64,000 bases of DNA from positions 31,085,023 through 31,149,022 of the forward strand of contig CM039510.1 in NCBI GenBank assembly GCA_022432975.1, given 5' to 3'. The notes beneath the pieces were generated by a model. That model had not been told where the DNA came from, did no database searches, and saw nothing but the letters and a program-made list of their open reading frames with translations. Position numbers and translations under genes: made by a program. Numbering within the stretch: the stretch's first letter is position 1; each line of letters starts with the position of its first letter. The DNA is from Begonia masoniana. Taxonomy: Eukaryota; Streptophyta; Magnoliopsida; Cucurbitales; Begoniaceae. This document shows positions 6,130-64,000 of this stretch, one piece after another.

Positions 6130-6146
6130 ATAAATAAATAAAACAA

Positions 6147-6176
6147 AACAACAACAGAATTCATTCTGTTGTTGTT
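6147..6176 (+). other. LTR leader hairpin, E1 5' LTR
   Basis: Arms AACAACAACAGAA and its exact complement (13 bp) around the loop TTCA. It sits directly after the ATT tract, as in five other LTR copies here. Confidence 0.8.
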
Positions 6177-6669
6177 CGAACCGACGACGCGAGGAGCAGG
6201 ACAGGGAGAGGGGGAGAGAACGCGAGCGACGGAGGCGAGCCGAGCACCGGCGACTCCGGCGTTCTCCGGCCAGACGGCGGCGATGCAGGCTTCCGGCCTG
6301 TCTCCGCGCACGAACGCCGGTAAGGTTCGGTTTTTCTTGTTTTTGCCCTGCTTTTCGGTTCTGTCGAGGTCGAGGGTGACGAGCTCGATTGAGCTCCGAT
6401 CACCGGCCGATTTGGGTTGTTTCCGGCGTGGGTTCGTCGACCCTTGGACCGACTTTAGTCGTCTGGTTGTGAGGAGCCCAATTTGGGCAAATTTCAGTAA
6501 AAACCGATTTGGGGCATTTCGGGTTTGAGTGTGTAGGCTTGGAATTTCGATTAGTTTAGGCTAATTGGATGTGAGGGTGGTCGATTGGTGAGGATTTGAG
6601 TGAAAATTGATGAAAAATCGAAAAAGGAAATTTTCCGGTTTAAGGGCAGATTCGGGTTTACTAGAATTT

Positions 6670-6832
6670 GACCTAGTTAGAGTCGTTTGTTTTCAAATTC
6701 CTTTTGACAGGTTAAAATAGGTTATTAGAGGAGTACGTGGCCGCTGGAATCGTTCGATTCCGATATCCGACGCAAAAGTTACGCGTGTTTGAGGTTTCGG
6801 GTCGGTTTTTACCGAACCCAAATTGGTGGCCC
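6670..6832 (+). other. Conserved LTR block, E1 5' copy
   Basis: Contains TTAGAGGAGTACGTGGCCGC, the dyad GGAATCGTTCGATTCC, CCGACGC and GGGTCGGTTTTTACCGAACC. The same block recurs at 12963-13127, 30484-30652, 36244-36420, 53490-53655 and, inverted, 20176-20335, while flanking sequence differs greatly between families. Confidence 0.8.
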
Positions 6833-6932
6833 ATTTAGTTAGGCTTTCATTGGATTAGGCTAGAAATAGGAGTTTGAGAGTAATTAGTAGATGTAGGCTT
6901 GATTTTAATGGTTTGATGAATATTTATCGTAG

Positions 6933-6986
6933 GTCGAGCTGTAAATGGACAGGTAATCGGGTACCCTCAGCGAGCTAGGACGCCAG
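6933..6986 (+). other. Exon-like 54-nt segment in E1 5' LTR
   Basis: Preceded by TTTATCGTAG and followed by GTAAGTAGAG, a textbook plant acceptor and donor around 54 nt. Homologous segments of 45-54 nt lie in the same place in the E1 3' LTR, E3, E4, E6, E7 and E10. Splicing is inferred, not shown. Confidence 0.55.
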
Positions 6987-59712: not shown

Positions 59713-59721
59713 TATTATTTA

Positions 59722-61158
59722 TTTGTAATTTGTTTGCATATTTAAACAAGTATGTTATTGAACTTGAGAGAAATTGATAAATCTATAGTCCTAAAGTACT
59801 TAAATTTTTAATTAAACAGAAAAACTTGTTAATCTCCTCTCTTAGGTTATATTGATTCAACAATGAGATCATAATATGTCTATTTTCCTAGTGGTACAAT
59901 CATTTTCCTTATGAGATCAAAATCAGATTCAAAGTAAAACCAAATAAACCACATTCTTTCGTTTGTAGAACAAAATTATCAAAATATGTCATAAAGATAT
60001 ATATTAAAATTACACTCAAATGATACAATACTCTTACGAGCAGCAAGTTCATGAAAGACCTAATAACTTTAGTAGGTGAATCCACGTAATGGAGATTGTG
60101 TGTATATGTTTTATAGTCAAGTAATAACTCTAAATTCTTTATTTAACAACCAAGAACTTGATGCTTATGGGCTTTATTTTAATCGAGCTCTTGCTATTAT
60201 TGAAATATTTATCACAAAATAACTTGAATGGTGTTTTAATGCCTTGTGAATTTCAAAGTCCAGGGACAAAATTCTACAATTGTATTCCATAATTAGATGT
60301 CTCGTGGTATAATAAAAATTAAGCTGCCATAATTGAAGAAGTTGCAAGTGTTTACTTAGCACTTTCTAAAAATAGTTTTTTCAACTATCAGTTAAATGTC
60401 TTGATATCAATCATTGATAGTCTTGACATCTAACAGAATCAAAATTATAATACAATCTTAAAAAATTCTTCAATTTCTTCTCAAAGAAGATAAGTTCAGT
60501 TGCTTCTATTGTTCTGTGAATCGTCAAGACATTGTGCAATGTCCTAAAAATCACTTAGGGAATTAGTCTGGTTCTATATTTATTCATTTTGTTTGAAGAA
60601 AGGAAAGCTCCAAAAGAATTAATTTATCTTTTGGCTGTTGAATCTCTCTTTGATTGATCAATGTGCAGTATTTTGAATTCCACACTTCTAATGGAATGTA
60701 AATGATCTCTATATTTATCAGAAAATACTTTCAATTGGCTAGAATCCATTACTTTGAACTAAACTACATCTCGTTGAATCATACTAAATATTTGATATGC
60801 ATTTTTTACCTTGCTAAAAAATCGATCATTGTTTACCAGTCACACATTGTCTAACAAAATCATATGCTCTCTCGATTTATTCCTAAAAATTCCAATTCGT
60901 GTGAATTCTTCCCCAACTTGTTTCTTGAGAAGAGACGAGAAACATGTTCAATATTATTTGATTGAATAGTCGACTCATCTAGTTGTTGTTTGAAGAAGTC
61001 ATCTACTTTAATCGTTATTTTTTCAATAAAAGCAAACAGGAACAAACAAATCTAGTTTTTTACTAAGATTTCAAATAGTTGTATCGAATTCAAGTTGATT
61101 ATGTTTCACCTCTTCCTTAGAGAAAGATGATAAAAAAAAATTCTCAATTAGGGTCCTT
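59722..61158. other. AT-rich unassigned region
   Basis: Short open frames only, none recognised. The minus strand has scattered phrases that might be a heavily decayed copia-type element, but I cannot support that. Right flank of the MULE and left flank of E12. Confidence 0.3.
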
Positions 61159-61444
61159 TGTAACACCCGAGATTTTTTTTTAAGAAGGAAAATTGGAGAG
61201 AAAATAAAATGATAAGATAATTGTTTAATAAATAGGTTATTTTAATTAGTTTAAAAGAAAAGTGAAGTTTCTAATTAAAGTCGGGTCCTAGTGAACTTAA
61301 GCCGGCGGTTATAATTTAAGAATGAGAGTTAACGAAATTTGAAATGGTCGAAAGTACGGTAGGGCATAATGGTAATTTCATTTTATTAATGTTATTATGA
61401 TTATTATTATTATTAATTAATTTTTATAAAAAAAAAATAAATGA

Positions 61445-61474
61445 ACGACAGAATGGCCGAAGCCATTCTGTCGT
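61445..61474 (+). other. LTR leader hairpin, E12
   Basis: Arms ACGACAGAATGGC and GCCATTCTGTCGT (13 bp, perfect) around CGAA. Compared with E6, AAC to ACG in one arm is matched by GTT to CGT in the other. Confidence 0.82.
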
Positions 61475-61986
61475 CGAGTCATGTGAGGAGAACAGGGGAG
61501 AGGGTAGGGCGACGAGGGGGCGACGATCGCCGACCAAGACCGCCGCCGATTTCCAGCGTTTTCCGGCCAGACCACATCGCGATGCCAGGCTGCAATTTCC
61601 GGCCGTCTTCGCGCACGAACCGAACGGGTAAGCCCTTTGTTCTCCCTGTTTTCGGTTTTGTTGTGGCCTAGGTGTGGAGCGAGTTTAAGCTCCGATCGCC
61701 GTTGTTTTTTGGCTGCCCTTAGTGTCCTGATTTCGAGCTCAACGCCGGCAAAGATTGCCGAGCAACAGGGAGCTCGGATTAAGCCAAAAATCTGAGAACC
61801 CCCTTGTCTCTGAGCCTTCGGGTTTCTTGTTGAAACCTTGAGTTGTTGGGTTAGTTTAATGTTAATTAGGTATGAAGGGGATTGATTGGTGAGAAACATT
61901 GGTGTGAATTGATGGAAAACTGAAAAGGGGAAAATTTACGGGTTAGGGCAGATTCGGGTTTTGCTGTATTTGACCTAGTTACAGTC

Positions 61987-64000
61987 GTGTTTGTGTGAGT
62001 CACCTCGTCGCGAATTAGTGTCTGAAAGTATGACAGTTCGGGAGGTGTTTGTGTGAGTCACCTCGTCGCGAATTAGTGTCTGAAAGTATGACAGTTCGGG
62101 AGGTGTTTGTGTGAGTCACCTCGTCGCGAATTAGTGTCTGAAAGTATGACAGTTCGGGAGGTGTTTGTGTGAGTCACCTCGTCGCGAATTAGTGTCTGAA
62201 AGTATGACAGTTCGGGAGGTGTTTGTGTGAGTCACCTCGTCGCGAATTAGTGTCTGAAAGTATGACAGTTCGGGAGGTGTTTGTGTGAGTCACCTCGTCG
62301 CGAATTAGTGTCTGAAAGTATGACAGTTCGGGAGGTGTTTGTGTGAGTCACCTCGTCGCGAATTAGTGTCTGAAAGTATGACAGTTCGGGAGGTGTTTGT
62401 GTGAGTCACCTCGTCGCGAATTAGTGTCTGAAAGTATGACAGTTCGGGAGGTGTTTGTGTGAGTCACCTCGTCGCGAATTAGTGTCTGAAAGTATGACAG
62501 TTCGGGAGGTGTTTGTGTGAGTCACCTCGTCGCGAATTAGTGTCTGAAAGTATGACAGTTCGGGAGGTGTTTGTGTGAGTCACCTCGTCGCGAATTAGTG
62601 TCTGAAAGTATGACAGTTCGGGAGGTGTTTGTGTGAGTCACCTCGTCGCGAATTAGTGTCTGAAAGTATGACAGTTCGGGAGGTGTTTGTGTGAGTCACC
62701 TCGTCGCGAATTAGTGTCTGAAAGTATGACAGTTCGGGAGGTGTTTGTGTGAGTCACCTCGTCGCGAATTAGTGTCTGAAAGTATGACAGTTCGGGAGGT
62801 GTTTGTGTGAGTCACCTCGTCGCGAATTAGTGTCTGAAAGTATGACAGTTCGGGAGGTGTTTGTGTGAGTCACCTCGTCGCGAATTAGTGTCTGAAAGTA
62901 TGACAGTTCGGGAGGTGTTTGTGTGAGTCACCTCGTCGCGAATTAGTGTCTGAAAGTATGACAGTTCGGGAGGTGTTTGTGTGAGTCACCTCGTCGCGAA
63001 TTAGTGTCTGAAAGTATGACAGTTCGGGAGGTGTTTGTGTGAGTCACCTCGTCGCGAATTAGTGTCTGAAAGTATGACAGTTCGGGAGGTGTTTGTGTGA
63101 GTCACCTCGTCGCGAATTAGTGTCTGAAAGTATGACAGTTCGGGAGGTGTTTGTGTGAGTCACCTCGTCGCGAATTAGTGTCTGAAAGTATGACAGTTCG
63201 GGAGGTGTTTGTGTGAGTCACCTCGTCGCGAATTAGTGTCTGAAAGTATGACAGTTCGGGAGGTGTTTGTGTGAGTCACCTCGTCGCGAATTAGTGTCTG
63301 AAAGTATGACAGTTCGGGAGGTGTTTGTGTGAGTCACCTCGTCGCGAATTAGTGTCTGAAAGTATGACAGTTCGGGAGGTGTTTGTGTGAGTCACCTCGT
63401 CGCGAATTAGTGTCTGAAAGTATGACAGTTCGGGAGGTGTTTGTGTGAGTCACCTCGTCGCGAATTAGTGTCTGAAAGTATGACAGTTCGGGAGGTGTTT
63501 GTGTGAGTCACCTCGTCGCGAATTAGTGTCTGAAAGTATGACAGTTCGGGAGGTGTTTGTGTGAGTCACCTCGTCGCGAATTAGTGTCTGAAAGTATGAC
63601 AGTTCGGGAGGTGTTTGTGTGAGTCACCTCGTCGCGAATTAGTGTCTGAAAGTATGACAGTTCGGGAGGTGTTTGTGTGAGTCACCTCGTCGCGAATTAG
63701 TGTCTGAAAGTATGACAGTTCGGGAGGTGTTTGTGTGAGTCACCTCGTCGCGAATTAGTGTCTGAAAGTATGACAGTTCGGGAGGTGTTTGTGTGAGTCA
63801 CCTCGTCGCGAATTAGTGTCTGAAAGTATGACAGTTCGGGAGGTGTTTGTGTGAGTCACCTCGTCGCGAATTAGTGTCTGAAAGTATGACAGTTCGGGAG
63901 GTGTTTGTGTGAGTCACCTCGTCGCGAATTAGTGTCTGAAAGTATGACAGTTCGGGAGGTGTTTGTGTGAGTCACCTCGTCGCGAATTAGTGTCTGAAAG
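61987..64000 (+). repeat. 58-bp tandem array, at least 34 copies, E12
   Basis: GTGTTTGTGTGAGTCACC recurs every 58 bp from 61987 to the window end with no difference seen. It begins inside the first predicted intron, at the edge of the conserved block. Confidence 0.94.

What the first reader, a model, noticed from the sequence alone, without database searches (positions are those of the whole stretch)
6130..64000. Hypervariable satellite arrays sit inside predicted leader introns of LTRs
Seven LTR families (E1, E3, E4, E6, E7, E10, E11) share an exon-like 45-54-nt segment with AG before and GTAAGT after (degenerate in E11), then a family-specific zone, then a CTAAG...GTGTAG acceptor-like block. 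The zone between holds 128/88-bp repeats in E1, 66 bp x2 in E3, 41- and 40/31-bp arrays in E6, a 12-mer x3 in E7, GATCA in E10 and 59 bp in E11. Seen: order and motifs. Inferred: the zone is an intron removed from genomic RNA, so array growth is tolerated and LTRs act as satellite nurseries. Known comparison: satellites from the 3' UTR of Ogre-type elements; I do not know of this LTR-intron version.
Basis: partly seen in the sequence, partly recalled or inferred. Interest (0 to 1): 0.88.

Follow-up and report, generated by a model that had tools for sequence, protein, structure and literature searches.

The report
Leader introns inside retrotransposon LTRs
The end repeats of a large group of jumping elements, in what is likely a plant genome, carry a segment of usually about 600 bases that is exactly missing from at least 20 copies, likely because it was spliced out of RNA that was then copied back into DNA, and beside it a fast-changing tandem-repeat zone that is predicted to be a second intron but was not found missing in any copy, so it is likely kept in the RNA that gets copied.

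Summary
The landmarks are real and genome-wide: 1,943 exact copies of exon-2 end plus donor, reversed control 0. This one, not the array zone, has DNA evidence of splicing: 20 of 22 exact junction matches, plus L029, lack it precisely, including three pairs placed like the two LTRs of one element. The array zone has conserved donor and acceptor blocks but 0 processed copies found. Tandem repeats cover 42% of the zone against 0.6% of the upstream intron in 14 LTRs, 19% against 0.8% in the nine chosen without knowledge of repeats, with exceptions. So "arrays sit between the landmarks" holds as a tendency; "removed from genomic RNA, hence tolerated" is contradicted, because an intron removed from the reverse-transcribed leader would vanish from the new LTRs. 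Six arrays of the window are perfectly periodic (poly-A 1,910, TAT 2,300) and may be assembly artefacts. How often the upstream intron was lost is unsettled. No RNA data were available.

The parts
6320..6932 (+). E1 predicted intron 1 (array-free); donor GTAAGG, acceptor TATCGTAG
   Evidence: Sequence; 590-616 nt in 27 measured copies; absent in L029
6933..6986 (+). E1 exon 2 (54 nt)
   Evidence: length 54 in 34 of 36 sampled copies with a GTAAGT donor
6987..7982 (+). E1 array zone = predicted intron 2, with 129-bp unit x1.8
7983..8504 (+). E1 exon 3 part of the LTR, to the LTR end; primer-binding-like site follows at 8508
12614..13227 (+). E1b predicted intron 1
13228..13281 (+). E1b exon 2
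30273..32246 (+). E6a predicted intron 1, enlarged by a 1.5-kb 40-mer array at 30667-32168 (array outside the zone)
32301..34527 (+). E6a zone with 41-mer and 40-mer arrays; acceptor AG lost (GTGTAT)
35909..36516 (+). E6b predicted intron 1
36517..36570 (+). E6b exon 2
36571..41623 (+). E6b zone with 41-mer x17 and 40-mer arrays, interrupted by nested LTR E7 (39907-37381, minus)
45754..45761 (+). TATA-box-like TATTTAAG of E10, upstream of exon 1
   Evidence: Sequence; motif recalled
45882..46083 (+). E10 predicted intron 1 (202 nt)
46084..46134 (+). E10 exon 2 (51 nt)
46135..46623 (+). E10 5' LTR zone with 101-bp unit x2
46993..47394 (+). Tandem repeats in E10 after acceptor 2 (counter-example)
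56815..58574 (+). E10 3' LTR zone, with perfect AGATC x267 (57015-58351) absent from the 5' LTR
53754..55967 (+). E11 zone with perfect 59-mer x25; E11 is a solo LTR 52702-56619 with GCTGT on both sides
19298..19929 (-). E3 zone
17155..17702 (-). E4 zone, no array
38309..38913 (-). E7 zone
61987..64000 (+). Perfect 58-mer array of E12, starting inside predicted intron 1 (donor 61627|61628) and running 839 bp past the window
1..6129 (+). Perfect poly-A (1-1910), 88-mer (1928-3651) and TAT (3830-6129) arrays: possible assembly artefacts

Best explanation
The LTRs of this Ty3/gypsy clade hold a segment of usually about 600 nt with splice-site-like ends that is precisely missing from 21 copies read, likely because it is a leader intron spliced from RNA that was then reverse transcribed, and downstream of it a hypervariable repeat zone that is predicted to be a second leader intron and is likely retained in the RNA that serves as template. 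The order is U3, exon 1, intron 1 (usually about 600 nt), exon 2 (usually 54 nt), donor 2, array zone, acceptor 2, exon 3 and primer-binding site. Shown in DNA: the order, the motifs, the precise intron-1-less copies (in three cases as pairs placed like the two LTRs of one element), no processed copy of the zone in the patterns searched, and repeats far denser in the zone than in intron 1. Inferred: the spliceosome does the removal; RNA lacking the zone is translated or discarded, not copied, perhaps because a conserved motif some 20-50 nt after donor 2 (GCCTTCGGGCCTACACCA or kin) is needed in the template; the middle of the zone is free of sequence constraint, so tandem units arise and turn over there, whereas intron 1 is constrained.
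For: Joined exon query: 6 of 40 listed hits (40 scored of 3,321 candidates) run through the exon1-exon2 junction, none through exon2-exon3. Junction pattern: 22 exact, reversed control 0; all 22 read, 20 true. L029 is a solo LTR of family E1, 98-99% identical to an intron-bearing copy, flanked by ATAAT on both sides. Pairs L032/L045, L054/L055 and L061/L060, 6.4-8.8 kb apart on one strand and 89-93% identical, all lack intron 1; L045 and L055 follow a polypurine stretch as 3' LTRs do. Intron-1-bearing acceptor 1,529 exact, donor 2 1,943 exact, controls 0. Downstream-half tree: 15 changes of the label, at least 9 by starred branches. exon2-exon3 pattern 0; relaxed pattern 6 hits, all 6 read as unspliced with changed donors. 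Repeat coverage in 14 LTRs: zone 7209/17315, intron 1 44/7498, exon 2 0/753; in the nine chosen blind: zone 1790/9515, intron 1 44/5180. Intron 1 alignable over 70% between the 14 LTRs, zone middle 8.5%. Acceptor block seen in E1, E3, E6b, E7, E10, E11 and 11 of 12 fetched loci in which it was located.
Against: No RNA evidence of any kind. The upstream-half tree needs 11 changes but its starred branches force only 2, and the bootstraps of both trees had not settled, so few losses spread by recombination are not excluded. The 21 copies are at most 17 insertions (three pairs; L031 and L032 share their flank). L029's junction carries one G-to-A change. No E6 hit ran through a junction (0 of 40 listed, of 1,567 candidates). 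Zone retention rests on absence: sensitivity of the exact pattern is about 0.36 (23 of 40 exon ends times 12 of 19 exon-3 starts). Folds of the post-donor stretch are not clearly more stable than shuffles (z -1.26 to 0.86 in 8). 4920 of the 7209 repeat bases in the zone come from three loci picked as E6, a family known for arrays; in the blind nine the zone holds 56% of repeat bases against 36% under circular shifts, reached by 311 of 5000 (with L120, whose LTR end was not found, left out: 80% against 43%, 11 of 5000). Of 14 LTRs 2 have denser repeats elsewhere and 1 has none. E6a, E10, E12 and L043 have arrays outside or across the zone.
Confidence: 0.63

Rival explanations
1. The zone is not an intron. 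Donor-like and acceptor-like blocks are conserved for another reason (packaging, RNA 3'-end formation or promoter function), and only intron 1 is spliced.
For: 0 processed copies of the zone found against 20 for intron 1; conserved motif beyond the donor consensus (33 of 40 sampled copies).
Against: Both ends fit splice sites: GGTAAGT in 34 of 40 sampled copies; exon 2 lies right behind an acceptor that was likely used and would lack a partner donor; acceptor block T/G-rich ending GTAG|GT.
Confidence: 0.27
2. One reading: the zone is spliced from genomic RNA, so array growth is tolerated.
For: Repeats are dense in the zone.
Against: By the known steps of LTR reverse transcription, a leader intron spliced from the template is lost from both new LTRs; no copy lacking the zone was found, and the intron that does get lost carries almost no arrays (44 of 7498 nt).
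Confidence: 0.05
3. Intron 1 was lost once or a few times and spread to other families by recombination between packaged RNAs.
For: Upstream-half tree forces only 2 changes; exon 2 is a shared stretch where recombination could act.
Against: L029 sits inside family E1 in both halves; best trees need 11 and 15 changes; the copies carry many distinct exon 1 sequences.
Confidence: 0.25
4. Intron-1-less copies are DNA deletions between short direct repeats, not products of splicing.
For: The two ends share GGT.
Against: 602 pairs of 3-nt direct repeats lie 550-680 nt apart around intron 1 of L010, yet the same junction recurs in 21 copies; donor 2 and acceptor 2 share up to 6 nt (AGGTAA, in families whose exon 3 starts GTAA) and no such deletion was found.
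Confidence: 0.03
5. The six perfect arrays of the window (and the 94-mer in L043) are assembly artefacts, not satellites.
For: 0 internal mismatches over 1.3-2.9 kb for units of 1 to 88 bp; poly-A 1,910; E1 has at most about two 129-bp units in 25 measured copies; E10's 5' LTR lacks the AGATC array.
Against: Other arrays of the clade range up to 98% match, so perfect ones could be the young end; no reads to check.
Confidence: 0.5

Closest known systems
Ogre/Tat elements and their 3'UTR tandem arrays (Lathyrus satellites, PMC7004042, passages seen; Macas 2009 seen only as a cited reference)
   Same: Ty3/gypsy elements; short hypervariable arrays at a fixed place, unit differs by family, some expand
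   Different: There the arrays lie downstream of gag-pol, before the 3' LTR; here inside the LTR, in the leader
BARE1 and EVADE spliced subgenomic RNAs (PMC3735527 and PMC12786077, passages seen)
   Same: Splicing splits mRNA from replicating RNA
   Different: Introns are in the coding region; the BARE paper could not amplify DNA copies of spliced RNA from barley, here such copies are likely present
Diaspora, soybean (PMC1142308, passages seen)
   Same: Predicted splice donors inside the LTR, long leader
   Different: Acceptors predicted near the start codon; the authors state that no intron upstream of gag was reported for any LTR element (2005)
Retroviruses whose unspliced RNA is the genome (PMC5035971, listing with start of abstract; packaging signal beyond the donor, and donors in R of some retroviruses, recalled)
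   Same: Retention of an intron in the copied RNA, proposed here for the zone
   Different: I recall no complete introns within a retroviral LTR; no packaging test here
Ty element marked with an intron (told in PMC12786077, passage seen)
   Same: Intron loss shows an RNA intermediate
   Different: Engineered; here natural and inside the LTR

Membership tests
Ty3/gypsy LTR retrotransposon | gag, protease, RT, RNase H, integrase in that order | tested here: met
   E10: Retrotrans_gag, RVP_2, RVT_1, RT_RNaseH_2, Integrase_H2C2 above cut-off, rve below it, across broken ORFs searched apart; other families not tested
Ty3/gypsy LTR retrotransposon | LTR ends, target duplication, primer-binding-like site | tested here: met
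   TGTAACACC...GCGTTACA, TGGTATCAGAGC, GCTGT and ATAAT duplications
Chromovirus (Tekay-like) | chromodomain | tested here: inconclusive
   Not found by Pfam in E10's last ORF, E up to 5; one broken copy only
Ogre/Tat | tandem arrays between pol and 3' LTR | tested here: not met
   The arrays studied lie inside LTRs; the stretch before the 3' LTR was not scanned across families
Spliceosomal intron (intron 1) | GT...AG ends | tested here: met
Spliceosomal intron (intron 1) | precise processed copies | tested here: met
   20 of 22 pattern matches and L029
Spliceosomal intron (zone) | GT...AG ends | tested here: met
   E6a's acceptor is broken
Spliceosomal intron (zone) | precise processed copies | tested here: not met
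   0 found
Spliceosomal intron (both) | spliced reads | not testable with these tools
   No RNA data
Satellite nursery | same unit in long arrays outside the element | not tested
   Search for the 58/59-mer elsewhere was not run

The most novel reading that the evidence does not exclude
A clade of Ty3/gypsy elements keeps two introns inside each LTR: the second is the packaging handle, so only RNA that retains it is copied, and its unconstrained middle serves as a satellite cradle, while the first is repeatedly erased by copying partly spliced RNA.
Probability: 0.33. Interest if true: 0.86.

Novelty: new variant of a known kind. Interest (0 to 1): 0.73.

Why it matters
Introns upstream of gag were stated to be unreported in 2005 (PMC1142308, passages), and a 2025 review says that plant LTR elements generally lack introns, with exceptions such as Ogre and EVADE and with BARE1 splicing also named (PMC12786077, passages). 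My searches showed no report of introns inside LTRs in the listings that I saw (for the top 15 of 387; one search returned none). Genomic copies that lost one leader intron but, as far as searched, not the other would give a natural readout of which RNA is reverse transcribed, and tie that to where new tandem repeats arise.

Tried and rejected
RNA families: no Rfam match in the window. Hairpin after donor 2: conserved letters and some paired changes, but folding not clearly better than shuffles; not claimed. Relaxed exon2-exon3 pattern gave one promising hit, C8:36469985; read, it is unspliced. Microhomology deletion judged unlikely. The E10 joined query and a count of acceptor 2 did not complete, so junctions in the E10 family are untested.

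Rows dropped before counts: 2 of 22 junction matches are intron-bearing copies with changed acceptors (L059, L062); C1:57460892 was seen only as an alignment; of the 12 blind loci L117-L119 were left out because the acceptor was not found in the fetched stretch (all three have repeats after donor 2); exon 1 was not found in L118, L120 and L121 (for L120 and L121 intron 1 was set to 600 nt); L115's acceptor is a GT microsatellite and not clean; the scan for perfect arrays covered L001-L073, not later loci.
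Full report
What was checked. It is rich in LTRs of one related group; E10 carries Ty3/gypsy domains. That the host is a plant is my inference from genome size and element style, not a call.

Anatomy. The LTRs read: U3, exon 1 (GC 0.74, 0.61 and 0.49 in E1, E6 and E10), donor 1 (GGTAAG in E1, E6, E12; GTGAGT in E10), intron 1 of usually about 600 nt (202 in E10), acceptor 1 (TTTATCGTAG|GTCGAGC or kin), exon 2 of usually 54 nt, donor 2 (CCAG|GTAAGTAG or kin), the zone, acceptor 2 (TGCTAAGC..GCTTACG..TTCTGTGGTGTAG|GT or kin), exon 3, LTR end. 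E10 has a TATA-like box ahead of exon 1 (motif recalled), so both predicted introns would lie in the transcribed leader.

Beyond chance. The 18-mer exon-2 end plus donor occurs 1,943 times, acceptor 1 plus exon 2 1,529 times, reversed controls 0. Of 40 loci taken from the 100 listed acceptor-1 places (all on contig C1) without regard to the donor, 34 have GGTAAGT at the exon end and 33 have the CCTACACC-like motif behind it.

Processed copies. A query made of exon 1, exon 2 and exon 3 pieces of E1 found 6 of 40 listed hits (of 3,321 candidates) running through exon 1-exon 2 and none through exon 2-exon 3. The same for E6: none of 40 listed, of 1,567 candidates. A junction pattern gave 22 exact matches; all were read, 20 are true junctions and 2 are intron-bearing copies with changed acceptors. 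With L029 that makes 21 copies read, all with a GTAAGT donor 2. L029 is a solo LTR of family E1 flanked by ATAAT on both sides; its junction has one G-to-A change. Three pairs lie 6.4 to 8.8 kb apart on one strand, 89 to 93% identical, and two of their downstream members follow a polypurine stretch, as 3' LTRs do: if they are LTR pairs, the loss was in the cDNA before insertion. L031 and L032 share their flank, so the 21 copies are at most 17 insertions. In a tree of exon 2 plus the following 166 nt (69 rows) the label needs 15 changes, at least 9 by starred branches; in a tree of the upstream half (41 rows) 11, at least 2; neither bootstrap had settled. Recombination between halves could lower the true number of losses.

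The zone. Exact exon2-exon3 pattern: 0. One-mismatch pattern in another form: 6 hits, all read, all unspliced. Sensitivity of the exact pattern is about 0.36; at the rate seen for intron 1 roughly a dozen hits would be expected (my estimate, using that 7 of 12 located exon 1 ends fit the intron-1 pattern). So the zone is either not spliced, or RNA that has lost it is seldom or never copied.

In LTR reverse transcription the leader from cap to primer site is copied into R-U5 of both new LTRs (established knowledge). An intron taken out of the template there is gone from the progeny. The intron with processed copies has almost no arrays; the zone with arrays has no processed copy found.

Repeats and landmarks. 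In 14 LTRs (nine loci chosen from the acceptor-1 list before their repeats were seen, three E6 loci, E1 and E10) tandem repeats of period 10 or more cover 7209 of 17315 nt of the zone, 44 of 7498 of intron 1, 0 of 753 of exon 2, 381 of 6367 of U3 plus exon 1, and 1354 of 9925 after acceptor 2, of which 962 lie in L120 where the LTR end was not found. The zone holds 80% of repeat bases against 51% under circular shifts; 2 of 5000 shifts reach that. The three E6 loci supply 4920 of the 7209. In the nine blind loci alone the zone has 1790 of 9515 and intron 1 44 of 5180; the zone holds 56% against 36% under shifts, 311 of 5000, or, without L120, 80% against 43%, 11 of 5000. So the contrast with intron 1 is strong, the contrast with the whole stretch moderate. 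By LTR: denser in the zone in 11 of 14, denser elsewhere in 2, no repeats in 1. Units mostly differ by locus: 24, 29, 26 and 140, 33, 34/65 (twice), 55, 40/41, 75, 129, 101. Intron 1 is alignable over 70% between the 14 LTRs at 80% identity, the zone middle over 8.5%, so the zone looks unconstrained and intron 1 constrained. Exceptions: E6a's intron 1, E10 exon 3, and the E12 and L043 arrays that begin in intron 1, with no exon 2 seen beside them.

How variable. Family E6 varies strongly: between exon 2 and acceptor 2, or in stretches ahead of acceptor 2, a 40/41-bp unit of one kind x5 to x47 and a 40-bp unit of another kind x7 to x78. Family E1 does not. The six perfect arrays of the window have no internal mismatch and lengths of 1.3 to 2.9 kb whatever the unit; in loci L001-L073 (238 kb, partly overlapping, LTR-centred) the only other perfect array of 600 bp or over was the 94-mer of L043. 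I hold artefact and recent expansion about equally likely.

Literature. PMC1142308 (passages): no introns upstream of gag reported; PMC12786077 (passages): plant LTR elements generally lack introns; PMC3735527 (passages): copies of spliced BARE RNA not amplified from genomic DNA; PMC7004042 (passages): satellites from Ogre 3'UTR arrays. The listings of searches showed nothing on introns inside LTRs; the library lacks most subscription journals.

Noticed in passing
window 8505-11534: E1 internal region has no open frame of 110 aa or more, and the LTR spacing is 5.8-5.9 kb in five genome copies: E1 looks non-autonomous.
   Followed up: no
window 52702-56619: E11 is a solo LTR inserted into the 3' LTR of E10, with GCTGT on both sides.
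   Followed up: partly
window 37381-39907: Minus-strand LTR E7 is nested inside the 41-mer array of E6b.
   Followed up: partly
L043:1004-2778: Perfect 94-mer array of 1775 bp in another LTR of the group, in place of the stretch that would hold exon 2.
   Followed up: partly
L024:1315-1414: A run of 100 N lies just after donor 2 of an E1 copy.
   Followed up: no
window 22102-23176: A diverged 59-bp array (84% match) with no link to the LTRs examined.
   Followed up: no
L031 and L032: Two intron-1-less LTRs about 4.9 Mb apart on C1 share the flanking sequence, so they look like one insertion copied by a later duplication.
   Followed up: no
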